DNA from: JAZDEY01 sp043808325 [NCBI: Candidatus Eiseniibacteriota bacterium] | GTDB taxonomy: Bacteria; Arandabacterota; Arandabacteria; Arandabacterales | Direction of reading: 5' to 3' | DNA: 64,000 nt | Assembly (NCBI GenBank): GCA_043808325.1 | Contig: JAZDEY010000056.1 | Span: 7,237-71,236 of the forward strand | In this document: positions 49,841-64,000 of the stretch, piece after piece | Position numbering within the stretch: position 1 is the stretch's first letter | Layout: each line of letters begins with the position of its first letter | Position numbers and translations under genes: made by a program | The notes under the pieces: model-generated | Told to the model about the DNA's origin: nothing | The model's database searches: none | Seen by the model: the letters and a program-made list of their open reading frames with translations, nothing else

Positions 49841-50171
49841 GAGACTGACGAAGAAGTTCAGAACGATTGAAGAAGATCTAAGGATCTTCATAGAGACCCA
49901 GCTCGTCTACTTCCACAAGTTGAAGTTGGACAATAGGGGCGTATTCAGAATTCCTGATCTGGAAGCAGCAAGTCCTCCCATATACAAGGCGAAGAAGTTC
50001 GCTTGTCGATCCCTGAGGGGAACTGGGAGTAGATCGGGAATCCGGGTGATATACGCCTATTTTGAAGTGGCGGACCGGATAGAGTTAATAGAAATCTACT
50101 ACAAGGATGATCAAGACAATGCGGACCGTGACAGAATATCCAGGTTCTTTCAGAGCATCCGGGATGAATAA
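49788..50171 (+). CDS. RelE/ParE-like toxin partner of the Panacea antitoxin
   Basis: 127 residues (ATG at 49788; a GTG three bases earlier is equally possible). It is a small basic protein with the RelE/ParE-like order: helical start (FKKIKLRPEFLRDIRRLTKKF), then KKFACRSLRGTGSRSGIRVIYAYFEVADRIELIEIYYK, in which strands alternate with basic residues, and a final helix (NADRDRISRFFQSIRDE). The gene overlaps the antitoxin gene, so the pair is translationally coupled. The likely action is mRNA cleavage on the ribosome, as in RelE, but catalytic residues are not certain. Confidence 0.72.
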   Translation: MKGFKKIKLRPEFLRDIRRLTKKFRTIEEDLRIFIETQLVYFHKLKLDNRGVFRIPDLEAASPPIYKAKKFACRSLRGTGSRSGIRVIYAYFEVADRIELIEIYYKDDQDNADRDRISRFFQSIRDE

Positions 50172-50803: not shown

Positions 50804-52153
50804 TTATGCGATTCGTGCGGCTTCAGCTATCAACGACTTGCCGTCAAAATCCGACGGCGGCTCGATATCCATGATCTGAAGAATCGTCGGCGCGACGTCC
50901 ATCACGCTTGCGCCCTCCGCCTTGAGCCCGTGCCCCTTAACAAAGAGCATGGCATCATCGTAAGTGTGCATCCCCACGATCGGCCCCTTGCCGGACAGGG
51001 CCTTCTTGCCGAAAGCTCCCTTGGGATCGTAGCCGTTCACCGGGTCCACGATGAGATCGGCGGCAGCCTCGAAGTTCGGTCCGCTATAGATCTGATCCTT
51101 CGTGTACACGTCCTTGACGACCTTGTTACCCTGTTCATCGGTGAGGGCGAGCAACGCCGCCCGAAGTTCATCTCGCAAGGCCGGATATGCCGCCCGGCTC
51201 ACGCATCCTTCGGCTTCTCTCCCCTTGAGATTGATGAAGATCCTGCCCGGATCGAGCGTGTAAGCCCTTGTCCTCGCCGGATCGGTATCCGCCAGCGACT
51301 TGGCGTCCCCCGGCTTATAGGCAAGGTAGCCCCGGTCTTCGAGGAATTTGTTGAGATAGATCTCCCGCTTGAGGGTGCAGAAGCCGTGATCCGACATCAC
51401 CATCAGGGTGACATCATCTTCCAACTCGCCCTCCAGCTTGGCGAAGAATTTATCAATCTCACCGAAGAACTCCATGAACTCCTTGGCGTACTTGGGATGG
51501 CCCTGTTCCATGTACTCCCACATGAAATGATACAACCGGTCGGTCTCCATTATGTGCAGGATGGCGAAGTCCCACTTCTTTTCCTTATAAAGGTTAAAGA
51601 AGGCGCCGACCCGTGCCTCGAACACGCGCACCAGGTCGGGATAGAGATTGTCGAGATTCTCCCGCGCCCGCCAGGGATCGATGTCGATCTCGTACCCCTG
51701 GGTCTTAAGCCGGGGCGCAAGCGTATCCGGATAGGTCGCGCCACCGATGCGCGGCGCGTCGAAACCTGAGACCAGATACCCGTTGACGGCTCGCGGCGGA
51801 TAGGTGACCGGCACGTTCATCACGATCACGCTCCTGCCTTTTTCACTGAGCATTTCCCAAAGCGTAGTACTGGTCATCGTTGCCGAGTTCGGGAGATAGA
51901 TCTGGTAAGTGCCCGGCTTCCGATCAATGAAGCCGTAGATATTATGCTTCCCCGGGTTCTTGCCGGTCATCATGCTCGACCAGGCAACGCAAGAGACGCA
52001 CGGGTGGACCGAATTTAGCTCAATGAGCGAACCTTTATCGAAGATCTTCTTGAGGGCCGGCAGCGATCCCTCAGCCAGCTTCCGTTTCAAGAAACTCAAG
52101 GGGGTGCCGTCGAGGCCGATCACTACGACTCGAGGCTTCTTCTTGAACCACAT
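50804..52153 (-). CDS. AP-superfamily phosphodiesterase (paralog of the sat-operon protein)
   Basis: About 449 residues from the ATG at 52153 (AGGTG 5 nt upstream); a GTG 6 bp earlier is possible. No signal peptide. Motifs: VVVIGLDGTPLSFLKRKL (metal Asp), HPCVSCVAWSSMMTGKNPGKHNIYGF (Ser at the nucleophile position), LHIMETDRLYHFMWEY near 200, VMSDHGFCTLKREIYLNKF near 260, and a late IVGMHTYDDAMLFVKG segment. The overall arrangement and the VTYPPRAVNGYLVSGF block match the 46599 protein. The gene is single, convergent with the decayed gene and its repeat. Upstream, a TTGACC/TAACTT pair is only a weak promoter candidate. Confidence 0.84.
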   Translation of the reverse strand: MWFKKKPRVVVIGLDGTPLSFLKRKLAEGSLPALKKIFDKGSLIELNSVHPCVSCVAWSSMMTGKNPGKHNIYGFIDRKPGTYQIYLPNSATMTSTTLWEMLSEKGRSVIVMNVPVTYPPRAVNGYLVSGFDAPRIGGATYPDTLAPRLKTQGYEIDIDPWRARENLDNLYPDLVRVFEARVGAFFNLYKEKKWDFAILHIMETDRLYHFMWEYMEQGHPKYAKEFMEFFGEIDKFFAKLEGELEDDVTLMVMSDHGFCTLKREIYLNKFLEDRGYLAYKPGDAKSLADTDPARTRAYTLDPGRIFINLKGREAEGCVSRAAYPALRDELRAALLALTDEQGNKVVKDVYTKDQIYSGPNFEAAADLIVDPVNGYDPKGAFGKKALSGKGPIVGMHTYDDAMLFVKGHGLKAEGASVMDVAPTILQIMDIEPPSDFDGKSLIAEAARIA

Positions 52154-52297
52154 GCTCACACCTGGCCTTCATCAAGGGCTATGGTTGCTGTCCGGCCGCC
52201 GAACCTCGCGACGCACGGACAGGAAAGCGATCACACGAATCAAAACAGATTCAGGTGCAAAGTTACGCCCAAGGGCGTGGGCGGTCAAGCCTAAAAT

Positions 52298-53282: not shown

Positions 53283-54002
53283 TTACGCGCCGTGCATGCC
53301 GGTCAGGAAGAGGGCAGCGAGCAAGCCGCCCAGAAGAGTGTTGACCAGGTTGGCGACCTGCGTCGCCCGTAGTCCGGCTGCGGACTTGAACAGGCTTTCG
53401 GCCGCGGTAGCGAGCGCGCCGGCAAGAACGATGTAGCCGATCATGCCCGCACTTACTAGATGGAAGCCAAAGGCAATAAGTGCGAGCGCCGTGGCAGCGA
53501 TGGCACCCGAAATGGTCCCCACCACCGAGATTCCGCCGGGCGCACCAGCCTCTCTCACCTTGAGATCGTGAAGGGTGAGACTCTTCCGTGAAAGAGCCTT
53601 TCCCACCTCCGAAGCGACCGTGTCAAAGGCTGCGGTGGCAAGGGCCGCCGTGAAGAAGACGGCGAGAACCGGCATGGGTCTTAGGATCGCCACTAGGGCG
53701 CCGAACGCAGGAACTGCGAGATTGCCCAGGGCATTCCTCCAGGTCCTTCTGCCACCGGCGGGTTCGCTTATGCCTTCGCTGTCCTTCTGGCGAAACTTGA
53801 TCCGGGTGGTCGCACTCCCCAGGATCACGAAGCCGAGGAGCACGAGGAAACCTCCGGGGCCGAAGGCGTAGGTCATGACCGAACCGAGAATGACGCCCAC
53901 GAGCAGGCCCGAACGATCAAAGGCCCGGGCATAGAACCCCACGAGCCCAAGCCCAAGGTTGGGTAGGATGCTTAATCCGATTCTGGCTAGTGGCTGTAGC
54001 AG
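53283..54002 (-). CDS. DUF92 (TMEM19-like) integral membrane protein
   Basis: About 219 residues from the GTG at 53942, or 239 from a CTG at 54002. I prefer the latter. The 20 extra in-frame codons (LARIGLSILPNLGLGL) supply the first DUF92 helix, and AGGTGAGG lies 5 nt before the CTG, whereas the GTG has no ribosome binding site. An in-frame TAG lies just beyond. Family features: AFDRSGLLVGVILGSVMTYAFG, FVILGSATTRIKF, ATAAFDTVASEVGKALSRKS, GGISVVGTISGAIAA. DUF92 proteins have been linked to phytyl-phosphate kinase-type activity (VTE6) in phototrophs, so an isoprenoid- or lipid-phosphate role is possible here. It shares a promoter with the DUF362 gene. Confidence 0.8.
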   Translation of the reverse strand: MLQPLARIGLSILPNLGLGLVGFYARAFDRSGLLVGVILGSVMTYAFGPGGFLVLLGFVILGSATTRIKFRQKDSEGISEPAGGRRTWRNALGNLAVPAFGALVAILRPMPVLAVFFTAALATAAFDTVASEVGKALSRKSLTLHDLKVREAGAPGGISVVGTISGAIAATALALIAFGFHLVSAGMIGYIVLAGALATAAESLFKSAAGLRATQVANLVNTLLGGLLAALFLTGMHGA

Positions 54003-54098
54003 GCTCGCCTCACCTGTTCTCTATCGGTGTTGGGTGCGGAATCCCTATCTCCAACAGGCCCGTATCCTCGCCCGACACCGCAACCGGAAACAATTGCG

Positions 54099-54127
54099 AG
54101 TGTACCATGCGCCACGGCCGACGTCAA
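54099..54127 (-). promoter_or_regulatory. Sigma-70 promoter for the DUF92-DUF362 operon
   Basis: On the minus strand, TTGACG (54122-54127) and TACACT (54099-54104) have a 17-bp spacer. The start is near 54092. It is divergent from the plus-strand promoter at 54198-54227. Confidence 0.7.
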
Positions 54128-54197
54128 CCAACCGAGTTGAGATTATGGCGCTCCCGGACAAGGCAAGGGCTTACGCAAAAACAGGTGATGAATCCCA

Positions 54198-54227
54198 TTG
54201 ACAAGACCGGTCCGGTCGTGGTATAAG
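54198..54227 (+). promoter_or_regulatory. Promoter with internal dyad for the peptide-modification cluster
   Basis: A perfect TTGACA (54198-54203) and TATAAG (54222-54227) are 18 bp apart. The spacer contains the palindrome GACCGGTCCGGTC (54205-54217), a likely repressor or activator site. The ~115-nt leader that follows holds a hairpin (GATGAGC/GCTCATC, 54300-54319) just before the ribosome binding site. Nothing else is seen in 54003-54348. Confidence 0.75.
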
Positions 54228-54348
54228 TCATGTGGTGATAACTTAGGTGATTGCAGCCAAAAGTGGATACTTCCGGCTCCAAGTCCGAGCCTACAGGGTG
54301 ATGAGCTTTGGTGCTCATCTAAAATCTCTGTGAAGGGAGGTGAAACAT

Positions 54349-54450
54349 ATGGCAATTTTCTGCGGCAAGGGTGCTACAATGCAGAACGACGCGAGGCCGA
54401 AGCCGCCTCTTCCTCCACCGCCTCCTCCTCCCGAGGATCCGATTCTATAG
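54349..54450 (+). CDS. Candidate RiPP precursor peptide, 33 residues, poly-Pro
   Basis: A 33-codon gene too short for most gene callers. The ATG has a very strong ribosome binding site (GGGAGG, 8 nt upstream), its own promoter, and a terminator hairpin 30 bp after the TAG. The N-terminal part is MAIFCGKGATMQ with the only Cys at residue 5; after NDAR comes PKPPL, seven prolines (22-28), and EDPIL at the end. Codons for the seven prolines vary (CCT, CCA, CCG, CCC), so this is not simple repeat expansion. It directly precedes two radical SAM/SPASM enzymes with PqqD-like domains, two ATP-grasps and an exporter, the setting of a modified-peptide precursor. Alternatively it is a leader peptide: seven prolines would stall ribosomes without EF-P, and the hairpin could be an attenuator. 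Confidence 0.7.
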   Translation: MAIFCGKGATMQNDARPKPPLPPPPPPPEDPIL

Positions 54451-54479
54451 TCCGAATTAGGCGGCTGATTATGTAGGCT

Positions 54480-54512
54480 AGGGACGAGTCTAATCGCTCG
54501 TCCCTTGCTTGT
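54480..54512 (+). terminator. Terminator/attenuator between the short peptide gene and the enzyme genes
   Basis: A perfect 9-bp stem (AGGGACGAG 54480-54488, CTCGTCCCT 54497-54505) with an 8-nt loop is followed by TTGCTTGTTG. Partial read-through would give much more short-peptide mRNA than enzyme mRNA, as in many RiPP operons. Confidence 0.72.
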
Positions 54513-54532
54513 TGCAGAAGTGGCTGTGAGAG

Positions 54533-55282
54533 ATGGAAGCACAGAGAGAATTGCTCGTACGCCAAGCTCGGACGATCACTCAGCGCGAGGCCGAGCGGCA
54601 AGAACCCATCTTCGCGTTGCTGACCGGTTCCGCCGCCTGGGGTGCGGTCTCGTCGCGAAGCGACATCGACATCATATTCATTTCCCGGCAGAGTGACTTC
54701 GTATCCTACAGATACTACATGCCCGGGCTTACGGACGTCACCATTCGGACCGAAGTCGGAAGGATTCCTCTCGCCTACTTGGAGAAGATTCTTGCCTCGG
54801 GTTACGCAGACGACATTTCTACGGGAGTCCGCGAGCAGATAAGAAACGCGCGCGTGCTTCTCGGCGACCAGCAGAGAGCCCAGGAGATGATTGCCGGATT
54901 CGCCGCCCTCAAGCCCAGAAAGAAGCTCCTTGGGGAGTATCTCTTTCTGGCAGGAGAGGCTCTGGCCAAGACAAGACAGGCCCTGGCCGAGCCAAGTGCC
55001 ACTAAGGCCGTGTTATGGATGGATGCCCTGTCCAAGAATATCTGGCGACTTGTGCTCGTGGCCGACCACCAGATCGGTGTTCAGAAGGACAAGCACGAAA
55101 TCAGAGCGGCGCGTGCGGAACTGGACGAGCGCAAGTTCGCTGACTACCAGGTCTCAAGAAGGGTCGCGGGCATTGACAAGCAATCCGCCCTGACCATGTT
55201 GCGCGCAGCGCAGGCAGTGATATCGAAGGTATTGAATCTCGCAGGCATAAGCTCAAGCATTGTCGGTGAGATCGAGGAGTGA
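54533..55282 (+). CDS. Nucleotidyltransferase-fold protein with intact catalytic motif
   Basis: 249 residues. The Pol-beta/MNT-type motif is complete: LLTGSAAWGAVSSRSDIDII, with GS at 32-33 and the metal-binding Asp pair at 44 and 46. A later strand (DVTIRTEVGRIPL) could supply a third acidic or polar residue. The C-terminal ~130 residues are helical (KKLLGEYLFLAGEALAKTRQ, KNIWRLVLVADHQ). Such enzymes transfer NMP to a hydroxyl, phosphate or protein group. In this cluster the target could be the short peptide, a small molecule, or a carrier. The weak ribosome binding site (GAGAG) and the attenuator before it suggest low expression. It is followed at once by a degenerate paralog, which argues for a heterodimer. 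Confidence 0.8.
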   Translation: MEAQRELLVRQARTITQREAERQEPIFALLTGSAAWGAVSSRSDIDIIFISRQSDFVSYRYYMPGLTDVTIRTEVGRIPLAYLEKILASGYADDISTGVREQIRNARVLLGDQQRAQEMIAGFAALKPRKKLLGEYLFLAGEALAKTRQALAEPSATKAVLWMDALSKNIWRLVLVADHQIGVQKDKHEIRAARAELDERKFADYQVSRRVAGIDKQSALTMLRAAQAVISKVLNLAGISSSIVGEIEE

Positions 55283-55286
55283 CAGA

Positions 55287-56024
55287 TTGGAGAATCTCAA
55301 GGGGCTTTCGGACGGCACCCGGCAATTGATCGCTCAGGCGGCCGAGACGCTCCAGAAGGAGACCGGCGCCACGGCGGTCCTGCTGACCGGCCCTCACGCG
55401 CTAGGGCTTGATAGGGCCGAAGACAAGTTCTACTTTGTCTCGATAACCGAGGATCCCGAGGGCGTGATCGAGCATCGCTTCGCGGAACGCTATGCCGGTA
55501 TCGAACGGCAGATGGAGATCGGCATCTTCCCGCGCAAGTTCATCGAGAAGCTCGTGAAGGATGGCTACTGGGACATGGTCTCTCTGCGGGCAGCTGAGGT
55601 CCTGAGGATCGCAGTTCCGCTTTTCGATCCGACCGGATACGGCAGGGCCGCAGCCGAGGCCATGACGAAGTACCTGCCCGGAAAGCAGTTCATCTCGGGA
55701 AAAATCCACGGTATCAAGGCCACCTTCGATGATGCGGTCTCGTTGTACTCCAAGGGTGATTATGCGGGCGCGATACTGGTGGTACGCGAGGCCCTCCGGC
55801 TTGCGGTCGAACTCCTAGTGAAGCAATCCCCGGAGCCCGATCTGGCCGTAGAAGAGGTGGTCAAGGCCCGGCTTGGCGAACAGGGCTACACCTGGCTGCG
55901 CCAGGGCCTTGGCATTGACGGCGTCAGCGAAGCCGATCTAAGTCGTCAGCTGGACCGGCTGATCGATCTGAGCCGGCGAATCCTCAAAGATCTTGGCATC
56001 GCGGATGAGATTCTAGACTCGTAG
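55287..56024 (+). CDS. Degenerate nucleotidyltransferase-fold paralog with helical C-terminal domain
   Basis: 245 residues from the TTG at 55287, chosen because GAGGAG lies 7 nt upstream; an earlier TTG at 55260 would overlap the upstream gene. The catalytic loop aligns with the previous protein (LLTGPHALGLDRAEDKFYFV versus LLTGSAAWG...SDIDI), but GS has become GP and DxD has become DKF, so NMP transfer is unlikely. The C-terminal helices (YSKGDYAGAILVVREALRLAVELLV) resemble HEPN-type bundles. It may be a structural or substrate-binding partner of the intact enzyme 4 bp upstream. Confidence 0.7.
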   Translation: MENLKGLSDGTRQLIAQAAETLQKETGATAVLLTGPHALGLDRAEDKFYFVSITEDPEGVIEHRFAERYAGIERQMEIGIFPRKFIEKLVKDGYWDMVSLRAAEVLRIAVPLFDPTGYGRAAAEAMTKYLPGKQFISGKIHGIKATFDDAVSLYSKGDYAGAILVVREALRLAVELLVKQSPEPDLAVEEVVKARLGEQGYTWLRQGLGIDGVSEADLSRQLDRLIDLSRRILKDLGIADEILDS

Positions 56025-56100
56025 CTACGGGCGGTCCGACCTCGCGGCCGGCTGGAGCCCGTCCAAGAGTGGCTAGGCCAAACAGGAGTCCGCAAGCCTT

Positions 56101-57435
56101 ATGCCGATAATTGATGCCAGCCTCGTACACGTAGCCAGAGATCGGGCTCACGTTTTCTTCAATCCCATCACCGGGGGCTATGCGGTCACCGATGATCGCG
56201 GCGCCGCCCTTGTGGATCTCATGATGCGGACCGATGATGAAGATCAGGTCATAGACAGGGTAGCCGCCGACCTTCCACTCGATCCGGTGGCTGCGGCCGC
56301 CCGATATGTGGCATTCACCGAGAGACTCCGGAGCCGCGGCATCTTTGAGAGGATCGCCAGGTCCGCCGACGGAATCCCCACACCCTTCTTCGGATTCATC
56401 GAGGTCACTCGGAAGTGCCCCACCCTGTGCCGGATATGCGCGATCGATACCGGCAGAGGTTCCGAGGACGTACTCACCCTCGATGAGATCAAGGGCGTGA
56501 TCGATCAGTTTAAGGAGCTCGGCATCAAGTACGTGGCCCTCACCGGCGGCGACCCGCTTCTAAGGAGCGACCTCCTTGAGATTCTCAACCACGCGGCGAA
56601 ACGGGAGATGCCATCCGGGTTCTCGAGCAGCCTCGTGACCCTGACAGAAGACGTCGCGCGCGCGATCGGGGAAAGGGGTGTCCAGGTCCAGGTCAGCCTC
56701 GACGGAAGCTCGCCCGAGGTCAACGACTATAACCGCGGACCGGGCTCCTTCGAGAAAGCGATGAGGGGGATCGAGCTTCTCAACAAGCACAAAGTGGAGT
56801 TTCGGATCGCGTTCTGCATCATGAAGCACAACATAGGCGACATCGCGGCGATGATCAAACTCGGCGAAAGGCTTGGCGCCAAGGAGGTGGCCTTCAGGAA
56901 AATCAAGCTGCTCGGCAGGGCCCTCGATCTCAAAGAGCAGGTCTACCCGACTCCGCAGGAGATGGCCGGGGCCTATTCCCTGCTCTATCGGGAAACCTTC
57001 GGGCGCGACCCCGAGGCGATGAGGATCAATTCCAAGTTCACCGAGGTGCTCTTCGGCGGCCGCGGGGCGATCTTCGATCGTCTGCCCTGTGGCGCAGGCA
57101 GGAACGTCATCCACATCACCTACAAGGGGGACGTGGTGCCCTGCTCGCTCTTCACCGAGGACAAGTTCGTCCAGGGCAATATTCGCAGGGACCCCATCGC
57201 CAAGATCTGGAGGACCTCCGAAATGCTGGCCTTTTTCAGAGACACCCGGGTCGACGACATTCCCAAGTGCCGCGATTGCGCAGTCAAGTACGTATGCGGC
57301 GGCGGCTGTCGGGCCGAAGCCTATCTCCTGCACGGCGATCTCCTGGCAGAGTGCTGCGACTGCGAGGACCTCAAGGTCTTCTATAATCATGTGTTTGGCC
57401 ACACGGCCCAGAGTGAGAAGCCTCTGACAGTCTAG
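56101..57435 (+). CDS. Radical SAM/SPASM peptide-modifying enzyme with PqqD-like N-terminus
   Basis: 444 residues. Residues ~15-82 look like a PqqD/RRE-type peptide-recognition domain (FFNPITGGYAVTDDRGAALVDL ... RLRSRGIF). The radical SAM cluster is C106-x3-C110-x2-C113 (KCPTLCRIC), followed by LTGGDPLLRSDL and VQVSLDGSSPEVND. The SPASM region is complete: C-x12-G-x4-C (LPCGAGRN...GDVVPC), C-x2-C-x5-C-x3-C (CRDCAVKYVCGGGC) and Cys 418, 419 and 421 near the end, so two auxiliary 4Fe-4S clusters are expected. Such enzymes form thioether, C-C or C-O crosslinks, or epimerise residues, in precursor peptides. The 76-bp gap upstream contains no other gene. Confidence 0.86.
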   Translation: MPIIDASLVHVARDRAHVFFNPITGGYAVTDDRGAALVDLMMRTDDEDQVIDRVAADLPLDPVAAAARYVAFTERLRSRGIFERIARSADGIPTPFFGFIEVTRKCPTLCRICAIDTGRGSEDVLTLDEIKGVIDQFKELGIKYVALTGGDPLLRSDLLEILNHAAKREMPSGFSSSLVTLTEDVARAIGERGVQVQVSLDGSSPEVNDYNRGPGSFEKAMRGIELLNKHKVEFRIAFCIMKHNIGDIAAMIKLGERLGAKEVAFRKIKLLGRALDLKEQVYPTPQEMAGAYSLLYRETFGRDPEAMRINSKFTEVLFGGRGAIFDRLPCGAGRNVIHITYKGDVVPCSLFTEDKFVQGNIRRDPIAKIWRTSEMLAFFRDTRVDDIPKCRDCAVKYVCGGGCRAEAYLLHGDLLAECCDCEDLKVFYNHVFGHTAQSEKPLTV

Positions 57436-57522
57436 GGCCGGCATCCGGGAAGGACCGGCCACCGATGGCACAGTGACGATGCCTGGGGCAAGCAGTGCCT
57501 GAGAAGACGGGATGAGACGCAG

Positions 57523-58797
57523 ATGACGACGCCGCACCTGGTTCACTACTCGTTGCCCGAATGCGATCGCTACCTCCTTTTCAATCCGGCTTCCGGAGCC
57601 TGGCTCGTGACCGATTCGCGCGGCGACGGCATGATAACCGAGTACCTTGAGCGCAGGGGGCCCGCAGGTCCCTTCATTGAGAGACTGGCCAGGACTCCGA
57701 TCTTCAAGCAGATCGAGGAGGGCTCGGCCTACGGGCTCGTGCCCCAGAGACTTATCGTGGAGCTCACCACCGCCTGTAATCTCAGATGCAAGACCTGTTA
57801 CATGTCGGCTTCGCTTTCCCGCGACAACGAGATGAAGTTCGAGGAAGTGACAAGCCTCTTGCGGGACGCCGCTGCGGGCGGAACCGAGACCGTTGCCTTC
57901 ATAGGCGGCGAGCCCTTGATGAGGAGCGACCTTCCGGAGGTTCTGGATTTTGCCCTGGCCAACTTCGCGGATGTGATGCTCTCAACAAATGGGACTCTCG
58001 TGGATCAGAGCTTCCTTTCCCAATTCTCGAGAAGACGCAACCTCCTAATCCAGGTCAGTATCGATGGTCCCGATGAGACCTCGAACGACGCGATACGCGG
58101 CCGCGGCAGTTTCGTCAAGGCCACGAGGCTCTTGGATCTTGCCCGAGAGTGCGGCATTCGGACGGCTGTCTCCAGCGTCCTCAACCGGTGCAATTACGAT
58201 CTCGTGGGCAGGACCTGCGATCTCGCCGCCGCCAAGGGGGCCTCGCTGGCGATCTTCCACAAGGTCCACGTCTTCGGCCGCGCCCAGGACTTCCCCGAGA
58301 TCGTGCCCTCCAAGGAGCAGGTAATGCACGGCATGGGCGTGCTGCTCCAGAGATTCGATCAATACGAGCGGGCCGGAAAGATGATTGTCGATTTCCCTCA
58401 CAACAGGTGCTTCCGGGGAGATTCGGCCCTCGATACGGCTTTCCTGGGATGTCATTTCGGAAGGGCGTCGGCCTATGTCACCAGCGACGGCAATCTGGTG
58501 TGCTGCTCCCATCTGCGCGACGGCGAGTTCCGGTGCGGCGACCTGAGAGAGCGGGCTTTGCTCGAGATCTGGCAGAACTCACCGTGTCTTGATAGAATGC
58601 GAAAGATGACCGTGGAGGACATACCCTCCTGCCGGAAGTGTCAGTTCAAGTATATGTGCAGGGGAAGCTGCCGGGCGGACGCCCTCGGTCACAGCGGCGA
58701 TCTTTCCGGCGAACCGTACGATTGTGACGCCTTGAGAAGCTACTATGCCTACGTGCTCGACTACTATGCACGTCATTCTGAACCCGTGATCCCTTAA
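57523..58797 (+). CDS. Second radical SAM/SPASM peptide-modifying enzyme
   Basis: 424 residues. The N-terminus has a shorter PqqD-like segment (YLLFNPASGAWLVTDSRGDGMI). The cluster is C85-x3-C89-x2-C92 (ACNLRCKTCYM), then FIGGEPLMRSDL and QVSIDGPDETSND. The SPASM cysteines are complete: C-x12-G-x4-C (GCHFGRAS...DGNLVCC), C-x2-C-x5-C-x3-C (CRKCQFKYMCRGSC) and a last Cys in YDCDAL. It is paralogous to, but clearly diverged from, the preceding enzyme, so the two may act on different residues or in sequence. The 87-bp gap between them holds no convincing peptide gene. Confidence 0.86.
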   Translation: MTTPHLVHYSLPECDRYLLFNPASGAWLVTDSRGDGMITEYLERRGPAGPFIERLARTPIFKQIEEGSAYGLVPQRLIVELTTACNLRCKTCYMSASLSRDNEMKFEEVTSLLRDAAAGGTETVAFIGGEPLMRSDLPEVLDFALANFADVMLSTNGTLVDQSFLSQFSRRRNLLIQVSIDGPDETSNDAIRGRGSFVKATRLLDLARECGIRTAVSSVLNRCNYDLVGRTCDLAAAKGASLAIFHKVHVFGRAQDFPEIVPSKEQVMHGMGVLLQRFDQYERAGKMIVDFPHNRCFRGDSALDTAFLGCHFGRASAYVTSDGNLVCCSHLRDGEFRCGDLRERALLEIWQNSPCLDRMRKMTVEDIPSCRKCQFKYMCRGSCRADALGHSGDLSGEPYDCDALRSYYAYVLDYYARHSEPVIP

Positions 58798-58811
58798 GGA
58801 AGGATACAGCC

Positions 58812-59462
58812 ATGTTCATCGTGATCGACGGCATAGACGGTTGCGGCAAGTCCACCCAGGTCAAGATGCTCTCCGAGCTCTACGAAAAGCGAGGCACGAA
58901 GATGGTGACCTCAAAGTGGAAGGACTCGGAGTATGTCCAGAAGCTCTTCATCGGTGATCTTCTCAAGCGCTTCCAGGATGGCACAGTCAAGATTCCGCCC
59001 GAGGCACGGACTTTCCTGCTTGCCGCCGACATATCAAACCGGCTCGAGGGTTCCATTAAGCCCGCGCTAAAGCAGGGTCTGACGGTGCTCGGCGACAGGT
59101 ACATCTACAAGGTGGTCGCCCAGGGAATTGCGCGGGGCCTCGGCGCGCAATGGCTCGACAATCTCTTCTCGTTTGCGATCGAGCCTGAGATCAAACTGTT
59201 TCTGGACGTGGACCCTGGGCTGGCGGCCGAGCGGATCGTGGCCTATCGGGAGATCTCCTACTACGAAGCCGGAATGGACGTTCTTCCAGGCGCCGATCGT
59301 AAACACAACTTCATCGCCTTCCAGACCCGGGTGCGCCAGAACCTGCTCGCGATCGCGGATAAGGTCAAGGGGCTGGTGGTCGATGCTTCGACCACACCCG
59401 ACGAGCAGCGCGACCGGATCAGAGCCTATATCGACAGCCGCACCGGGGGAGCACCCAGATGA
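58812..59462 (+). CDS. Thymidylate-kinase-like P-loop kinase in the peptide cluster
   Basis: 216 residues with a good ribosome binding site (AAGGAAGG). Walker A is GIDGCGKST (residues 7-15), and the Tmk-type GDRYIYKVVAQGIARGL and FLDVDPGLAAERI segments follow. The DRY motif is present, but the TREPGGT loop that contacts dTMP in housekeeping Tmk is replaced by SKWKDSEYVQKL, and the Tyr-Gln of DRYxxSxxAYQG is lost. It could be a diverged dTMP kinase, or a kinase providing a phosphorylated intermediate for the nucleotidyltransferase and ATP-grasp enzymes around it. It overlaps the next gene by 4 bp, so it belongs to the operon. Confidence 0.75.
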   Translation: MFIVIDGIDGCGKSTQVKMLSELYEKRGTKMVTSKWKDSEYVQKLFIGDLLKRFQDGTVKIPPEARTFLLAADISNRLEGSIKPALKQGLTVLGDRYIYKVVAQGIARGLGAQWLDNLFSFAIEPEIKLFLDVDPGLAAERIVAYREISYYEAGMDVLPGADRKHNFIAFQTRVRQNLLAIADKVKGLVVDASTTPDEQRDRIRAYIDSRTGGAPR

Positions 59463-60361
59463 GGGTGGGTCTCGTCGGCAGCCAGGCCTCGCCCGACCTG
59501 CGCATCTTGAGGCGTGAGATCGAAGACCGGGGCCACAAGGCCGCTTTCATAAATCTCCGCAAGTTTCCCCAGTACGTGATGGCCGGCTTCGAGAGATCGT
59601 CCGCCCGCTCGGCCCTCGCCGTCGACCACGCCGACCTCCTGGACTTCGCGTGTTTCTACGTCCACGACCTGGAGGGCCGAGACGGGTTCTTTCGCGGCGA
59701 GTTCGGCCCCGAGATCTGGGCTCAGCTCAGAGATCGCTATCTCGAGTTTGCGAGATGTGAGGCCGATAACCTGGCGTTTACCATGGGGCTCGTCATGTGC
59801 TTGGGCGGCGCCAGGCCCATGGTCAACCGTCCTGAGGCACTTGTTCGAAGCCGCTTCAGACCGTCGATCCGCTTCAGACTTGCCCGGGCAGGGATTCCGC
59901 TCTGGCCTCTTCTGCCGGGCCCTCGGGCTTGGGATGCCGATCGCGGCGACGGTGCCGGCCCGCCCCTGGCGATGCGCATCAGGATCGTGGAGGAGTTCAC
60001 TTATGATGTGCCCTGCTTTCCGCGAAGATACGTAAACGCTCTCTCGCTCTTGGGCGGCCGACCCGAAGAGCGCTGGCGTAGTCTTGTGGTCAAAGAGGGC
60101 CTGACCCAATCGATGATACGCTACGAGGACGGCCGGGAAGAGCGGGCCGCTCTCCCGCGGGAGGCCGCCGAGCTCGCCGGCCGGGTCATCTCGGTGCTTG
60201 ATCTCGATGTGGCGGAGGTCCACCTCGTACCCCAGGGCGGCACCCTCAAGGTGCTCGACGTCCTTCCGTTTCCCTGGATCTCGGATTTCGAGGAAATAAC
60301 GGGCGAGGGATCGGCTGCTCCCATCGCCGAACGAATCTTATCGCTGGGGGGATCAAAGTGA
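59459..60361 (+). CDS. Degenerate ATP-grasp-like protein
   Basis: 300 residues, homologous in layout to the next gene: a Rossmann-like start (RVGLVGSQASPDLRILRREIEDRGHKAA), a mid-section GGARPMVNRPEALVRSRF, and an ATP-grasp-type end. The metal-site block reads VLDVLPFP (residues 265-272), where the partner has VLECNPAP: Glu became Asp and the Mg-binding Asn became Leu. The Lys-containing nucleotide-binding strand is also not recognisable. It is probably inactive as a ligase and may bind the peptide or form a heterodimer with the intact paralog. It overlaps both neighbours by 4 bp. Confidence 0.65.
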   Translation: MRVGLVGSQASPDLRILRREIEDRGHKAAFINLRKFPQYVMAGFERSSARSALAVDHADLLDFACFYVHDLEGRDGFFRGEFGPEIWAQLRDRYLEFARCEADNLAFTMGLVMCLGGARPMVNRPEALVRSRFRPSIRFRLARAGIPLWPLLPGPRAWDADRGDGAGPPLAMRIRIVEEFTYDVPCFPRRYVNALSLLGGRPEERWRSLVVKEGLTQSMIRYEDGREERAALPREAAELAGRVISVLDLDVAEVHLVPQGGTLKVLDVLPFPWISDFEEITGEGSAAPIAERILSLGGSK

Positions 60362-61302
60362 AAAACGGCAAGATCGGGATTTTCGGGCGGGACGATGATC
60401 CTGAGGTGGAACTCCTCAAACGCCGAGTCGAGGACCTGGGGGCGAAAGCGACCGTGATCGACCTATGCGGCTTCCCTAGGTTCACGCGTGCCTTGATCGA
60501 GGACGAGAGAATCATATTCGATGACCTCGACCTGACCTCGCTCGATGCCTTTTACCTGCGGCAAATGGGCTATTTCAGCCCGCTGCCCGAGAAGGAGCTC
60601 AACAAGGAGGAATGGGCGGACTACTTCGGCAAGTACAATGACTACCTGGCCAATGAAAGAGAAACCAGGTCGTTCACCGAATCGGTGATTCAGATACTCT
60701 GCGAGCTCCGGCCAGTCGTCAACCCATATCGCGCGGCTTTCTATCACAAGCTCAAAGCCTATCAATACTGGACCCTGGCGGCCAGCGGCCTTGCGGTACC
60801 GGATTTTGCCGCCGGCAACGACTTTTTCGAGATCAGGGATTTCCTGGGCCGTATCCCTTCTGTGGCGAAGCCCTTGACCGGCGGCTTTGTCTCGAAGTAC
60901 GCCCCTCAAGATCTCGACAAGGACAAGGAGAGTCTGCGCAGCCACCCGATGCTCGCTCAGCGGCAGATCTCCGGCAGGATGCTTCGCAGTTTCGTCGTCG
61001 CAGGCCGCTTGATCGGCACCTGTGAGATCGTCCACGCCGAGGGCGATGCTGACTCGCGCCACAACATTCTGGCCATGAAGGCTTACACGCTCAAGCCGGC
61101 GCACCAGCCGATTCCGGTCAAGGCCTGCGCGGTCCTGGGGATGGTGTTTGCCGGAGTCGATCTCATTTTGGATGAGAAGTCGGACACACTCTATGTGCTC
61201 GAGTGTAATCCGGCGCCTTTCTTCCGGAACTTCGAGGCTCAAACGGGACTACCCATAAGCCAGGAACTCGCCCATTACCTGGTTGAGAAGGCGGCGAAAT
61301 GA
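60358..61302 (+). CDS. RimK/microviridin-type ATP-grasp ligase
   Basis: 314 residues, GTG start. ATP-grasp features: KIGIFGRDDDPEVELLKRRVEDLG (pre-ATP-grasp domain), PSVAKPLTGGF (ATP-binding Lys), AQRQISGRMLRSFVVAGRLIG, then FAGVDLILDEK and VLECNPAPFF with Glu282 and Asn284 as Mg ligands. Layout and length are close to RimK and to the MvdC/MvdD-type ligases that form ester or amide bonds in microviridins. It would activate a carboxylate as acyl phosphate and join it to an amine or hydroxyl; the Glu-Asp near the C-terminus of the short peptide are conceivable acceptors (inference). It overlaps its neighbours by 4 bp. Confidence 0.8.
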   Translation: MKNGKIGIFGRDDDPEVELLKRRVEDLGAKATVIDLCGFPRFTRALIEDERIIFDDLDLTSLDAFYLRQMGYFSPLPEKELNKEEWADYFGKYNDYLANERETRSFTESVIQILCELRPVVNPYRAAFYHKLKAYQYWTLAASGLAVPDFAAGNDFFEIRDFLGRIPSVAKPLTGGFVSKYAPQDLDKDKESLRSHPMLAQRQISGRMLRSFVVAGRLIGTCEIVHAEGDADSRHNILAMKAYTLKPAHQPIPVKACAVLGMVFAGVDLILDEKSDTLYVLECNPAPFFRNFEAQTGLPISQELAHYLVEKAAK

Positions 61303-62084
61303 GACCCAGTCTTGACGAGATACGAGCGACCCTCGCGAGGAGGCTGGAGCTTGAGGCCCTTTATCTATGCGGACCCTTCGATGTCCAGGGTGAGCCTGCT
61401 TCGCCGGATATCCACGTACTCGCCGTCGTCCGCAGAGGGGACCTCAAGGACCTCCATCTGGTACCCGGCGTCTCGGATCTCACGCGGCGGGTCGAGGTGA
61501 GCGTGATTCCGTTATCCGGCCTCAAGGCGGCAATCGAGGGAGGCATTTCGACCTGGCTGATGTTCTATACGCTTGATAAGATGAGGCGGGGTAGGCTTAT
61601 TATGGAGACAGCAGATTTCGCCGCGCTCAGACAGAGAGCCGAGCAGGACTTGAGGTTAAGGCCGTCGTTCTATGCGTCGGCCCTGCGAGACCTGGTCGCG
61701 GCCCTCGGAGAGGCAGGGCCTGCAGGCCGGCCTGCAGGCGGCCGAACGGTGCCTGCCGCCCGAGCAGTACCCGCCCGACCAGTACTCGCTCGAGTGATGG
61801 CAGCCAACGCGGCGGTCCTCATCTCGCTTGCGCTTCGTACGATGGTGAAATTGCGGCGAGCGTTCTCAAAACATTCGGACCTCCTGAGCGAGATGAGTTC
61901 CGCACCCACCGAACCCCCGCTCCGGTTGGATAGACCCATGGCAGGCAGTACGTCCGCGGCGTCCGCGCAGGCCTTGATCGGCGCCGGCCGCTTCATCGAA
62001 TCGCTCTTTAAGACGCTCGGCATAGACTCCACCAGAATCCTCACTCCGATCGAGTGCAGACCCGCACGAGGGCAGATCTCGTGA
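61299..62084 (+). CDS. Third nucleotidyltransferase-like protein, degenerate
   Basis: 261 residues. The start mirrors the other two NTase-fold proteins: LYLCGPFDVQGEPASPDIHV aligns with the GSxxxG...DxD loop, but GS is GP and the second Asp is His (D37, H39). A second strand (LTRRVEVSVIPLSGL) and helical parts follow. The middle holds an Ala/Pro/Arg-rich low-complexity linker (about residues 140-160). The C-terminal helix bundle is short. It is probably non-catalytic. It is joined by 4-bp overlaps to the ATP-grasp gene and to the ABC exporter gene, so it is part of the operon. Confidence 0.6.
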   Translation: MRPSLDEIRATLARRLELEALYLCGPFDVQGEPASPDIHVLAVVRRGDLKDLHLVPGVSDLTRRVEVSVIPLSGLKAAIEGGISTWLMFYTLDKMRRGRLIMETADFAALRQRAEQDLRLRPSFYASALRDLVAALGEAGPAGRPAGGRTVPAARAVPARPVLARVMAANAAVLISLALRTMVKLRRAFSKHSDLLSEMSSAPTEPPLRLDRPMAGSTSAASAQALIGAGRFIESLFKTLGIDSTRILTPIECRPARGQIS

Positions 62085-63823
62085 CCACTCGCCAGAACCT
62101 CGGCCGGATCTTCGCTCTGCTCCGCCCGTACCGGGCCAAGCAGATCCAGACCTTGTTCTCGATGATCGCTGGGATCGCTCTGTCTTTGCTCTTGCCGCTG
62201 GTCTTGAAGTTCCTGGTCGACGATGTGATAACCAAGCGCAGGGCCGACCTGCTGGTGCCCCTGGTTCTTGTTACGCTGGTCATCTTCGCGGGCGGCGCCT
62301 TCTTCAATTTCCTCACCAGCTATCTCTTCAACGTGATGGGCCAGAGCATCGTGCGCGATGTCCGGAGAGGTCTCTTCGCCCATCTCACGCGGCTTCCCTT
62401 CAACTTCTTCACCGAGCAGGGCACCGGCAGGATCATGTCGCGGGTCCTCAACGACGTGAGTACGATCGGCGGGGTTGTCTCCTCGATTCTCGTCGATCTC
62501 CTGATCCAGTCATGCACGCTGGTCGCCATCTTCGCGATCATGTTCTACTTCAACTGGCGGCTCACCCTGATCTCTTTCGTTTCGATTCCGCTCTACATTC
62601 TGATCATAAGATTCTTCAACCGGCGCCTCAGGCAGACCTCCTACCTTACGATGGCCAAGCACGCCGAAGTCTCATCATCTCTTCAGGAGTGCCTGTCGGG
62701 CATCAAGGAGATCAGGTCCTTTAACCGGGAGGCCAGCGAAGTCGGCAAGTTCACGGCGAAGCTGACCGACTTCCTCGTGACGAGGGTCTGGCTCGGAATC
62801 ATAAGCAATGCGGCAATCCAGATCGGCTTCCTGGTGAGCTCAATAAGCACGCTCCTGATGCTTTGGTTCGGCGGCAACCTGGTGCTCTCTGGTGTGGTCT
62901 CGCTCGGGACCCTGATGGCCTTCTGGTCGTATCTGGGGCAGCTCTATACGCCCATAAACAAGCTGATGAACGTCAATGTGCAGTTGCAGGAGGCTGGCGC
63001 GGCCTTCATGCGGATAGACGAGATCTTGAGGGTCGAGCCCACGGTCACCGAGAAGCCCGGCGCCGCGAGCCTCCTTAAGGCGCGGGGCAAGATCGAATTC
63101 GACGGCGTGACCTTCTCCTACGATGGCGTGACGCCCATTCTCAGCCGGCTCACCTTCAGGATAGCGCCGGGCGAGAGAGTGGCGATTGTAGGCCGGAGCG
63201 GCTGCGGCAAGACCACCGTAGCCAGCTTGATCTCGCGGTTCTATGACCCGCGTGAAGGCCGCGTCAGCCTCGACGGCGTGGACTTGCGCGATCTCAAGAT
63301 CTCGGACTTGCGCCGCAGCGTCGCCCTGGTCTCCCAGGACACCTTCCTCTTCAATGCCTCCATAAAGGAGAACATCGAATTCGGCCGGAAGGGCGCGACC
63401 GAGGCTGAATTGGCGAGCGCCGCGCGAAGCGCGGGCGTCACCGACTTCGCGGATAGACTACCGCAGGGACTCAATACCGTGGTCGGTGAGCGCGGAGTCT
63501 GTCTGAGCGGCGGGGAACGTCAGCGCATTGCACTGGCGCGGGCCATCCTGCGCGATCCCGCGGTGCTTCTCCTGGATGAGGCCACGTCTCAGCTTGACAG
63601 TCAGGCGGAGAAGCAGTTGCGGGTGACCCTGGAGCAGGCAGTGAGCGGGAGAACCTCAATCATGATTGCCCACAGACTCTCCACGATCTCCGGGGCGGAG
63701 CGGATTCTGGTGCTCGAGAATGCCAGGATTGTTGAGGAAGGTACTCACCGAGCCTTGATGGACAAGCGAGGCATCTACTACTCGCTCTATGAAGAACAGG
63801 CTAGAGTCCAGGAACCGAGCTGA
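62081..63823 (+). CDS. ABC exporter (MsbA/ABCB-type half-transporter)
   Basis: 580 residues from the GTG at 62081, which overlaps the previous stop by 4 bp and has GAGG 9 nt upstream; an earlier GTG (62054) is less likely. The N-terminal six-helix exporter domain (LLRPYRAKQIQTLFSMIAG ... YLGQLYTPINKLMNVNVQL) is followed by a nucleotide-binding domain with Walker A GRSGCGKTT, signature LSGGERQRIALARAIL, Walker B VLLLDEATSQLD and the His in IAHRLSTIS. No C39 peptidase domain is fused, so any leader removal would need another protease. As the last complete gene of the peptide cluster it is the best candidate for exporting the mature product. Confidence 0.92.
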   Translation: MTTRQNLGRIFALLRPYRAKQIQTLFSMIAGIALSLLLPLVLKFLVDDVITKRRADLLVPLVLVTLVIFAGGAFFNFLTSYLFNVMGQSIVRDVRRGLFAHLTRLPFNFFTEQGTGRIMSRVLNDVSTIGGVVSSILVDLLIQSCTLVAIFAIMFYFNWRLTLISFVSIPLYILIIRFFNRRLRQTSYLTMAKHAEVSSSLQECLSGIKEIRSFNREASEVGKFTAKLTDFLVTRVWLGIISNAAIQIGFLVSSISTLLMLWFGGNLVLSGVVSLGTLMAFWSYLGQLYTPINKLMNVNVQLQEAGAAFMRIDEILRVEPTVTEKPGAASLLKARGKIEFDGVTFSYDGVTPILSRLTFRIAPGERVAIVGRSGCGKTTVASLISRFYDPREGRVSLDGVDLRDLKISDLRRSVALVSQDTFLFNASIKENIEFGRKGATEAELASAARSAGVTDFADRLPQGLNTVVGERGVCLSGGERQRIALARAILRDPAVLLLDEATSQLDSQAEKQLRVTLEQAVSGRTSIMIAHRLSTISGAERILVLENARIVEEGTHRALMDKRGIYYSLYEEQARVQEPS

Positions 63824-63878
63824 CCGATCTTCCCCGGCCGCCAAGCGCGGCGCAAAGCGCTACCGACTATTAGGCCAT

Positions 63879-64000
63879 ATGTCCGGTGAGTGGTTTTTGA
63901 TCGCTTTCTCATCCTCTGCTCTCGAGACCTCTTTGAGCGTTTTTCGACTCTTGGAAGCAGCCGGTCTTCGAATCGGCTTCACCAGAGTCTTTACGAGCGA
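63879..64000 (+). CDS. Start of a possible further gene, cut by the window edge
   Basis: From the ATG at 63879 the frame stays open for 40 codons to the window end (MSGEWFLIAFSSSALETSLS, then VFRLLEAAGLRIGFTRVFT). It lies 55 bp after the ABC exporter with only a weak AGG site. The beginning vaguely resembles DUF3343-type small proteins, but this is too short to judge. Confidence 0.35.
   Translation, partial: MSGEWFLIAFSSSALETSLSVFRLLEAAGLRIGFTRVFTS

What the first reader, a model, noticed from the sequence alone, without database searches (positions are those of the whole stretch)
54198..63823. Candidate new peptide-modification (RiPP-like) system
Seen in sequence: one promoter, a 33-codon gene, then NTase, degenerate NTase, two radical SAM/SPASM enzymes with PqqD-like N-termini, a Tmk-like kinase, two ATP-grasps, a third NTase-fold protein and an ABC exporter, most joined by 4-bp overlaps. 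Established: rSAM-SPASM, PqqD/RRE domains, ATP-grasp ligases and ABC exporters recur in RiPP pathways, and NTase genes occur beside some lasso-peptide clusters. I know of no described class combining all of these with a Tmk-like kinase. That this is one pathway is inference.
Basis: partly seen in the sequence, partly recalled or inferred. Interest (0 to 1): 0.92.

Follow-up and report, generated by a model that had tools for sequence, protein, structure and literature searches.

The report
Peptide-tailoring operon with nucleotide-handling enzymes
A bacterium of unknown kind carries a compact, intact set of genes that looks built to decorate a tiny proline-rich peptide with an unusual mix of radical, ligase, kinase and nucleotide-transferring enzymes and then export it, a combination not found described in the papers searched.

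Summary
The operon is real and intact: nine co-directional genes (54533-63823), five of them linked by 4-base start/stop overlaps. It encodes three paralogous pol-beta-type nucleotidyltransferases (only the first keeps the GS..SDxD motif), two radical SAM/SPASM proteins, a thymidylate-kinase-like protein, two paralogous ATP-grasp proteins (only the second keeps E-x-N) and an MsbA-like exporter. The likely precursor is a 33-residue proline-rich peptide (54349-54450) with the best Shine-Dalgarno match among the window's 1617 ATGs, behind an 11/12 promoter match at 54198 and before a terminator-like hairpin. The 92-codon frame starting at 54198 is probably not the precursor. One Rhizobium plasmid carries a related set (two radical SAM genes, nucleotidyltransferase, thymidylate-kinase-like gene, short ORF) without ATP-grasp. 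A distantly related plasmid nucleotidyltransferase found five loci (its own included), all with a PqqD gene. Best reading: a RiPP-type pathway that adds a PqqD-linked nucleotidyltransferase and a nucleotide kinase to radical SAM and ATP-grasp chemistry. Peptide modification is well supported; the substrate, the nucleotide or phosphate step and the product are inferred. No close relative of the operon was found, and no whole genome is held.

The parts
54198..54227 (+). Promoter-like site, TTGACA - 18 bases - TATAAG
   Evidence: 11 of 12 matches; 6 such sites in the window (both strands) against 0.2 expected. The tool's own scan did not list it because it demands T in the last -10 position.
54300..54319 (+). 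Hairpin in the predicted 5' leader of the transcript
   Evidence: Fold; whole leader z -1.8, so weak
54336..54343 (+). Shine-Dalgarno sequence of the short peptide ORF
   Evidence: 8-base match, 5-base spacing; best of 1617 ATGs in the window
54349..54450 (+). Candidate precursor peptide, 33 residues, 11 prolines with a run of seven, one Cys, one Thr, no Ser/Tyr/Trp; ends ...EDPIL
   Evidence: no NCBIfam match at E 10; third-position GC 0.56, lower than the genes, but only 34 codons
54480..54505 (+). Terminator-like hairpin after the precursor, expected to let only part of transcription through
   Evidence: z -3.2; pattern count alone is at chance level
54533..55282 (+). NTase1: pol-beta-type nucleotidyltransferase with helical C-terminal domain; keeps GSAAWG...SDID
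   Evidence: Pfam Polbeta E 4.5e-4, 20.8 bits against cut-off 26.9; motif; model pLDDT 65, best Foldseek matches LinB and ANT(4') chains at TM-scores 0.37-0.44
55287..56024 (+). NTase2: intact paralogue without the catalytic motif (TTG start, SD AGGAG)
   Evidence: Similar to NTase1, BLASTP E 3e-4 in a set of nine; motif absent; no family above cut-off
56101..57435 (+). rSAM1: radical SAM/SPASM protein with N-terminal PqqD-like region
   Evidence: Pfam radical SAM 1.2e-25, SPASM 2.3e-13, PqqD 22.5 bits against cut-off 23.4; CX3CX2C, CX12GX4C, CX2CX5CX3C
57523..58797 (+). rSAM2: second radical SAM/SPASM protein, 28% identical to rSAM1
   Evidence: its N-terminal 75 residues match no Pfam family at E 1
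58812..59462 (+). Thymidylate-kinase-like P-loop kinase
   Evidence: Pfam 2.4e-24, NCBIfam dTMP kinase 88.4 bits against cut-off 83.25; best solved relative 2plr, E 2.4e-30
59459..60361 (+). GRASP1: intact ATP-grasp paralogue lacking E-x-N; probable pseudoenzyme
   Evidence: BLASTP to GRASP2 E 2e-14 over the length, set of nine; E-x-N absent; no family
60358..61302 (+). GRASP2: RimK-type ATP-grasp with E-x-N at 282-284
   Evidence: Pfam RimK 36.4 bits, cut-off 21; best solved relative 7drm, E 3.5e-11, then RimK-type glutamate ligases
61299..62084 (+). NTase3: intact paralogue of NTase1 without the full catalytic motif
   Evidence: BLASTP E 1e-5 to NTase1, set of nine; motif absent
62081..63823 (+). 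MsbA-like ABC exporter without a peptidase domain; GTG at 62081 overlaps the NTase3 stop
   Evidence: NCBIfam MsbA 482.9 bits, below its cut-off 602; the 62054 GTG listed first has no SD

Best explanation
A RiPP-type operon. The 33-residue peptide is made in excess over the enzymes, because a hairpin follows its gene. Its N-terminal half is held by PqqD-like regions of the radical SAM/SPASM proteins, which alter the proline-rich half or the single Cys. GRASP2, with GRASP1 as non-catalytic partner, activates a carboxylate (Glu29, Asp30 or the C-terminus) with ATP and forms an amide or ester. The polyproline stretch between Lys18 and Glu29 is a stiff rod, so joining an outside amine seems likelier than a ring across it. 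NTase1, with NTase2 and NTase3 as non-catalytic partners, and the thymidylate-kinase-like enzyme add or supply a nucleotidyl or phosphate group. The ABC protein exports the product. Shown: intact genes, overlaps, families, motifs, paralogy, signals of the short ORF, recurrence of the NTase/kinase/radical SAM set on one Rhizobium plasmid. Inferred: substrate identity, order of steps, chemistry of each step, pseudoenzyme partnership, export.
For: Families and motifs. Coupling: four-base start/stop overlaps at 59459, 60358, 61299 and 62081. Precursor signals: SD, promoter; unique proline run; hairpin. Related set on Rhizobium sp. T1473 plasmid NZ_CP149876.1: two adjacent radical SAM genes, thymidylate-kinase-like gene (27.6% over 203 residues, E 1.6e-15 in a set of nine), nucleotidyltransferase with SDID, MazG-like gene, 45-residue ORF behind a good SD. 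Nucleotidyltransferase with PqqD: of 5 plasmid records found with the Corynebacterium protein (itself included) all 5 loci carry an annotated PqqD gene, adjacent in 4, 5.2 kb away in 1. A model of 7 plasmid nucleotidyltransferases, without window or Rhizobium sequences, searched over 12,816 frames of 109 sequences, ranked after its 7 members: a partial Streptomyces frame (4.5e-8), the Rhizobium protein (1.9e-4), window NTase1 (0.03), window NTase2 (0.78); profile-profile E 7e-5, probability 63%, 186 columns. 12 of the 25 NCBIfam models shown for rSAM1 are named peptide maturases. Precedent: in lasso peptide pseudomycoidin a kinase phosphorylates the peptide and a nucleotidyltransferase-family protein adds hexose to that phosphate (PMC8498205, passages).
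Against: The substrate link rests on position and expression signals; no homologue of the peptide was found. PqqD in rSAM1 is just under its cut-off, rSAM2's N-terminus matches nothing, and a model of 5 PqqD proteins found neither. Five of the 25 NCBIfam models shown for rSAM1 are heme-pathway proteins, and one solved relative acts on a nucleotide sugar. GRASP2's best NCBIfam matches are glutamate ligases, not peptide maturases (48.7 and 48.8 against 47.2 bits). The peptide has one Thr and no Ser, so an obvious phosphate acceptor is lacking. The kinase is not obligate: no match in 5 of 5 further NTase loci tested (L103-L107). It scores just above the dTMP kinase cut-off, so it could simply make dTDP. 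No leader peptidase is among the nine genes. NTase1 is only distantly related to the PqqD-linked proteins (E 0.03 and 0.78 are not significant alone), and NTase3 was not recovered. Scans with GRASP2, rSAM1 or the window's radical SAM pair found no relative.
Confidence: 0.6

Rival explanations
1. A non-peptide natural-product operon: the enzymes build a nucleotide-linked or aminoglycoside-like small molecule, and the short ORF is a regulatory leader peptide whose proline run stalls ribosomes and controls the hairpin (attenuation).
For: NTase1 model resembles LinB/ANT(4'); a kinase and a nucleotidyltransferase also sit in a Streptomyces cluster with P450 and ketosynthase genes and no radical SAM annotated in the 18.6 kb read; the hairpin starts about 30 bases after the short ORF's stop; radical SAM relatives include cytosylglucuronate decarboxylase and five heme-pathway models.
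Against: 12 of the 25 NCBIfam models shown for rSAM1 are named peptide maturases and its first solved match is 5wgg (recalled: a peptide maturase); a borderline PqqD region is present; the minimum-energy fold keeps the hairpin, though rival pairings were not searched for.
Confidence: 0.2
2. A graspetide pathway in the ordinary sense: GRASP2 forms Lys/Thr to Glu/Asp rings, and the other enzymes are tailoring extras.
For: GRASP2's best solved match is 7drm (recalled: a graspetide enzyme), with 9bou and 7m4s lower in the list; paired ATP-grasps occur in some microviridin-like loci (PMC8939145, passages); SPASM genes are common neighbours there.
Against: MvdC and MvdD models score 35.5 and 19.3 bits against cut-offs 425 and 475, and glutamate-ligase models score slightly higher than any peptide-maturase model; the peptide has Lys18 and Glu29 on either side of a stiff proline rod; the related Rhizobium set has no ATP-grasp.
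Confidence: 0.12
3. A defence or toxin-antitoxin system (MNT-HEPN or viperin-like).
For: Weak MntA match (19.6 bits); pVip and two kinase models in PADLOC; NTase1's helical part aligns with HEPN chains among many other helical bundles.
Against: MntA cut-off is 60 bits; no HEPN family among the nine genes; viperin matches cover only the radical SAM core, and both proteins carry SPASM cysteines; an exporter ends the operon.
Confidence: 0.05

Closest known systems
Rhizobium sp. T1473 plasmid cassette (NZ_CP149876.1, 153446-159693), no description found
   Same: Two adjacent radical SAM genes, thymidylate-kinase-like gene, nucleotidyltransferase with SDID, short ORF with SD before the radical SAM pair
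   Different: No ATP-grasp, no ABC gene annotated within the 13 kb read; TPR and MazG-like genes; its second radical SAM protein lacks part of the SPASM cysteines by eye, though Pfam SPASM just passes (22.3 against 21.5 bits)
Corynebacterium glyciniphilum pCgly1 cassette and its Streptomyces/Parageobacillus relatives, no description found
   Same: Pol-beta-type nucleotidyltransferase with PqqD; thymidylate-kinase-like gene in Corynebacterium
   Different: Radical SAM annotated in 1 of 5 loci; MFS transporter; in some, asparagine synthase or diiron oxygenase
Graspetides (microviridin/plesiocin type)
   Same: ATP-grasp of the same broad kind, SPASM neighbours known
   Different: Below the curated cut-offs; precursor lacks the usual Thr/Ser-rich core; the word nucleotidyltransferase is absent from the main text of the graspetide survey
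Pseudomycoidin-type lasso peptides
   Same: Kinase plus nucleotidyltransferase tailoring of a ribosomal peptide; PqqD in lasso systems
   Different: Kinase of another type (HPr kinase in related lasso clusters); lasso cyclase and protease absent here
Mycofactocin MftC / PqqE
   Same: MftC is the best NCBIfam match of both radical SAM proteins; PqqE also matches
   Different: 170.6 and 142.9 bits against cut-off 265; precursor unrelated in composition (recalled)

Membership tests
SPASM radical SAM RiPP maturation | CX3CX2C and SPASM cysteines | tested here: met
   Both proteins; Pfam above cut-off
SPASM radical SAM RiPP maturation | PqqD-like recognition domain | tested here: inconclusive
   rSAM1 22.5 bits, cut-off 23.4; rSAM2 N-terminus none; a model of 5 PqqD proteins did not list rSAM1 and gave rSAM2 E 2
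SPASM radical SAM RiPP maturation | Short precursor gene in the operon | tested here: inconclusive
   Strong start signals but no homologue and no experiment
Graspetide | RimK-like ATP-grasp with catalytic residues | tested here: met
   GRASP2
Graspetide | Match to MvdC/MvdD equivalog models | tested here: not met
   35.5/425 and 19.3/475 bits
Graspetide | Leader motif of type Phhx(1,2)h (about half of precursors, PMC8939145) and Thr/Ser + Glu/Asp core | tested here: not met
   Read by eye on the 33-residue peptide: no full motif (P31-I32-L33 ends the chain), one Thr, no Ser
Phosphoglycosylated lasso peptide | Lasso cyclase (asparagine-synthetase-like) and B2 protease | tested here: not met
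   No such family among the nine genes; genes beyond 64000 not seen
Mycofactocin | MftC above cut-off | tested here: not met
MNT-HEPN toxin-antitoxin | MntA above cut-off with adjacent HEPN toxin | tested here: not met
   19.6 against 60 bits; no HEPN family among the nine genes
dTMP kinase | Model match and P-loop/DRY motifs | tested here: met
   88.4 bits, cut-off 83.25; motifs. Substrate not testable here

The most novel reading that the evidence does not exclude
A new RiPP class: a proline-rich peptide altered by a radical SAM pair, extended by an ATP-grasp/pseudo-ATP-grasp pair, and carrying a nucleotidyl group placed by a PqqD-guided pol-beta nucleotidyltransferase with two pseudoenzyme partners and fed by a dedicated nucleotide kinase, so that the product is a peptide-nucleotide conjugate reached by a route unlike microcin C.
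Probability: 0.25. Interest if true: 0.82.

Novelty: new variant of a known kind. Interest (0 to 1): 0.62.

Why it matters
If right, it joins radical, ligase and nucleotide-transfer chemistry on one very short peptide, suggests that PqqD-type guidance extends to pol-beta nucleotidyltransferases in several phyla, and offers a set in which two catalytic activities (ligase, nucleotidyltransferase) each come with intact partners that have lost their active-site motif. That makes the role of pseudoenzymes in RiPP assembly directly testable.

Tried and rejected
Relatives: GRASP2 and the radical SAM pair gave none in genome contigs; rSAM1, GRASP2 and the pair gave none in viral contigs. NTase1, NTase3 and GRASP1 gave none in plasmids; NTase2 was not tried there. 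GRASP2 gave 8 plasmid records; I opened 3: the best, Halocatena (30%), has two neighbours without similarity to the window set, and Sinorhizobium americanum and Agrobacterium showed no other part. 105 plasmid records matched rSAM1 at 1e-20, 15 listed: 6 annotated mycofactocin, 7 Sinorhizobium, 1 unannotated Streptomyces, 1 Rhizobium. I opened 3 of the 15; the two Sinorhizobium loci had no other part, the Rhizobium one did; the other 102 records were not opened. rSAM2 against phages gave 36 records at low identity, not opened. In viral contigs an alignment of four radical SAM proteins gave 7 loci and the two kinases 80 kept loci (of 106); none held a nucleotidyltransferase relative, 1 kinase locus had a weak ATP-grasp match and 1 a weak radical SAM match. 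Of 86 plasmid kinase records (60 listed) I opened 7, chosen for odd annotation and not at random, plus the Rhizobium one already open; 3 of these 8 (L004, L096, L098) have the nucleotidyltransferase nearby; Pantoea L101 has a different type (NTP_transf_5). A Pfam NTP_transf_2 search of those 8 records gave 2 matches in all (one under the family cut-off), one in the gene next to the kinase (L096) and one in a gene separated from the kinase by PqqD and an unannotated frame (L098); it missed the Rhizobium protein. A PqqD search of the same 8 records matched only Corynebacterium and Paenibacillus, in the latter no nearer than 28 kb to the kinase. The S. durmitorensis nucleotidyltransferase found 3 records, itself included; S. 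virginiae has no PqqD annotated in the stretch read, and the third is a short partial match. The Rhizobium nucleotidyltransferase found only itself.

The model was trained on the four proteins it then found, so it proves nothing; one search is the independent test, and its pool was chosen by earlier searches. E-values are for very small sets and look too good. The C-termini of the S. durmitorensis and S. virginiae nucleotidyltransferases look PqqD-like by eye, but neither Pfam nor my 5-protein model supports it, so I do not count it. The GRASP1 structure failed (pLDDT 36). Foldseek matches for NTase1 have TM-scores under 0.5 (top eight), and VIA rows are dominated by helical bundles. Rfam and tRNA: none. 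No horizontal-transfer signal in third-position GC: 0.69-0.81 in the nine genes, 0.69-0.83 in 14 other genes. One search (at least 4 of 5 terms) returned five papers, of which two were read in passages.
Full report
What is there. Between 54198 and 63823 lies one operon on the + strand. It begins with a strong sigma-70-type promoter match (54198-54227, 11 of 12), a leader with a small hairpin, and a 33-codon ORF (54349-54450) behind an 8-base SD. A hairpin follows at 54480-54505. Then come nine genes without any interruption: NTase1, NTase2, rSAM1, rSAM2, a thymidylate-kinase-like gene, GRASP1, GRASP2, NTase3 and an ABC exporter. After the kinase gene each start overlaps the stop before it by four bases, and third-position GC of the nine genes is that of the rest of the window. 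Nothing looks decayed: the losses are of catalytic residues in whole frames, not of frames.

The precursor. That frame has a 6-base SD match, but its start would lie upstream of the transcript. The 33-codon frame has the best SD of all 1617 ATGs and the only run of six or more prolines among six-frame open segments of 20 or more residues in 64 kb. Of short frames (15-110 codons) in 53943-64000 that lie mostly outside the genes, only three have an SD of 5 bases or more, and this is the best. It matches no NCBIfam model. Its residues limit the chemistry: one Cys (5), one Thr (10), Lys 7 and 18, Asp 14, Glu 29, Asp 30, no Ser, Tyr or Trp.

The enzymes. rSAM1 and rSAM2 are paralogues (28%) with complete CX3CX2C and SPASM cysteines. 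Their best NCBIfam match is mycofactocin maturase, well below its cut-off; of the 25 models shown for rSAM1 (91 matched), 12 are named peptide maturases and 5 heme-pathway proteins. rSAM1 has a borderline PqqD region. GRASP2 is RimK-like with E-x-N; its best solved relative is 7drm, followed by RimK-type glutamate ligases (that 7drm is a plesiocin enzyme is recalled), and in NCBIfam glutamate ligases score slightly above peptide maturases. GRASP1 is its paralogue without E-x-N and without the lysine-glycine stretch that GRASP2 shares with the Halocatena protein. NTase1 keeps GS...SDID; NTase2 and NTase3 are paralogues without it. The NTase1 model (pLDDT 65) is a nucleotidyltransferase domain plus helical bundle; the three Foldseek matches at E 0.001 or better are LinB and ANT(4')-IIb chains, at TM-scores of 0.37-0.44. 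The kinase is a full-length thymidylate kinase relative, closest among solved chains to 2plr. The exporter is MsbA-like with no peptidase domain. So two activities come with intact partners that have lost the active-site motif.

Relatives. A Rhizobium plasmid has two adjacent radical SAM genes preceded by a 45-codon ORF with a good SD, and, divergently, a TPR gene, a nucleotidyltransferase with the SDID motif and a thymidylate-kinase-like gene; a MazG-like gene follows the radical SAM pair. Following the kinase in plasmids led to Corynebacterium pCgly1, where a nucleotidyltransferase, PqqD, a frame that looks oxygenase-like by eye, and the kinase stand in a row, and to S. durmitorensis, where nucleotidyltransferase and kinase overlap in a cluster without annotated radical SAM or PqqD. 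The Corynebacterium nucleotidyltransferase found five plasmid records (itself included); all five loci have PqqD, adjacent in four and 5.2 kb away in one, which also has a radical SAM gene. The kinase was not found in L103-L107, so it is optional. A model of seven such nucleotidyltransferases without window or Rhizobium members ranks the Rhizobium protein and window NTase1 and NTase2 directly after its own members and one partial frame among 12,816 frames, but with E 0.03 and 0.78 for the window, and NTase3 does not appear. Profile comparison gives E 7e-5 and probability 63% over both domains. The kinship is therefore likely but distant.

How it may work. Peptide modification is the simplest reading of the gene set. 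Lasso peptides give the precedent for kinase plus nucleotidyltransferase tailoring: in pseudomycoidin the kinase phosphorylates the C-terminal Ser and the nucleotidyltransferase-family protein adds hexoses to the phosphate (PMC8498205, passages). Ruminal lasso clusters also list PqqD and nucleotidyltransferases (PMC7533575, passages). Here the acceptor is unclear, so nucleotidyl transfer to a carboxylate, to an added group, or to the single Thr all remain open. The seven-proline rod argues against a ring between Lys18 and Glu29 (inference from polyproline geometry, recalled). A regulatory role of the short ORF (attenuation) is the strongest rival and was not excluded.

What is known. The graspetide survey (PMC8939145, passages) reports SPASM genes and pairs of ATP-grasps in some loci and a truncated inactive ATP-grasp in one branch; the word nucleotidyltransferase does not occur in its main text, and kinase occurs twice, for histidine-kinase-like proteins. 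Full-text searches for the combinations ATP-grasp + radical SAM + thymidylate kinase + RiPP, polyproline + radical SAM + RiPP + precursor peptide, graspetide + radical SAM + nucleotidyltransferase + precursor peptide, thymidylate kinase + nucleotidyltransferase + natural product + radical SAM, proline-rich + radical SAM + RiPP + core peptide + ATP-grasp, and nucleotidyltransferase + ribosomally synthesized + radical SAM + PqqD + kinase returned nothing. Graspetide + radical SAM + genome mining returned 17 papers (12 listed, one read in passages), and PqqD + nucleotidyltransferase + RiPP recognition element two lasso papers. The library holds open-licence papers only, so this is not proof of absence.

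Limits. The organism is unknown, no genome is held, and no close relative was found, so conservation of the precursor could not be tested. This is the main gap.

Noticed in passing
L104, L105, L106, L107, L098: Pol-beta-type nucleotidyltransferases lie with PqqD genes on plasmids of Streptomyces, Corynebacterium and Parageobacillus, with MFS transporters and, variously, asparagine synthase, diiron oxygenase, CPBP protease or inositol-phosphate genes; a family of its own worth study.
   Followed up: partly
L107:8274-9257: Parageobacillus HAD hydrolase beside PqqD and the nucleotidyltransferase has a C-terminal stretch matching a 5-protein PqqD model (18 bits, small database), although Pfam does not call it.
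   Followed up: no
window 41807-42622: A second thymidylate-kinase-family protein, between a glycosyltransferase gene and a gene at 42619-44082 whose start resembles the phosphodiesterase proteins (for the first two; the third by eye).
   Followed up: no
window 46599-47987 and 50804-52159 (similar starts at 8758-10035, 21412-23121, 42619-44082): Several type I phosphodiesterase/nucleotide pyrophosphatase proteins in one 64 kb window; two confirmed by Pfam, the others by eye only.
   Followed up: no
window 49025-50171: HTH + SocA/Panacea antitoxin-like gene overlapping a small gene that matches no Pfam family; looks like a toxin-antitoxin pair.
   Followed up: no
L001:9818-10732: Halocatena plasmid ATP-grasp, followed by genes with no match to the window set and preceded by a short frame seen by eye; possible archaeal graspetide locus.
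   Followed up: no
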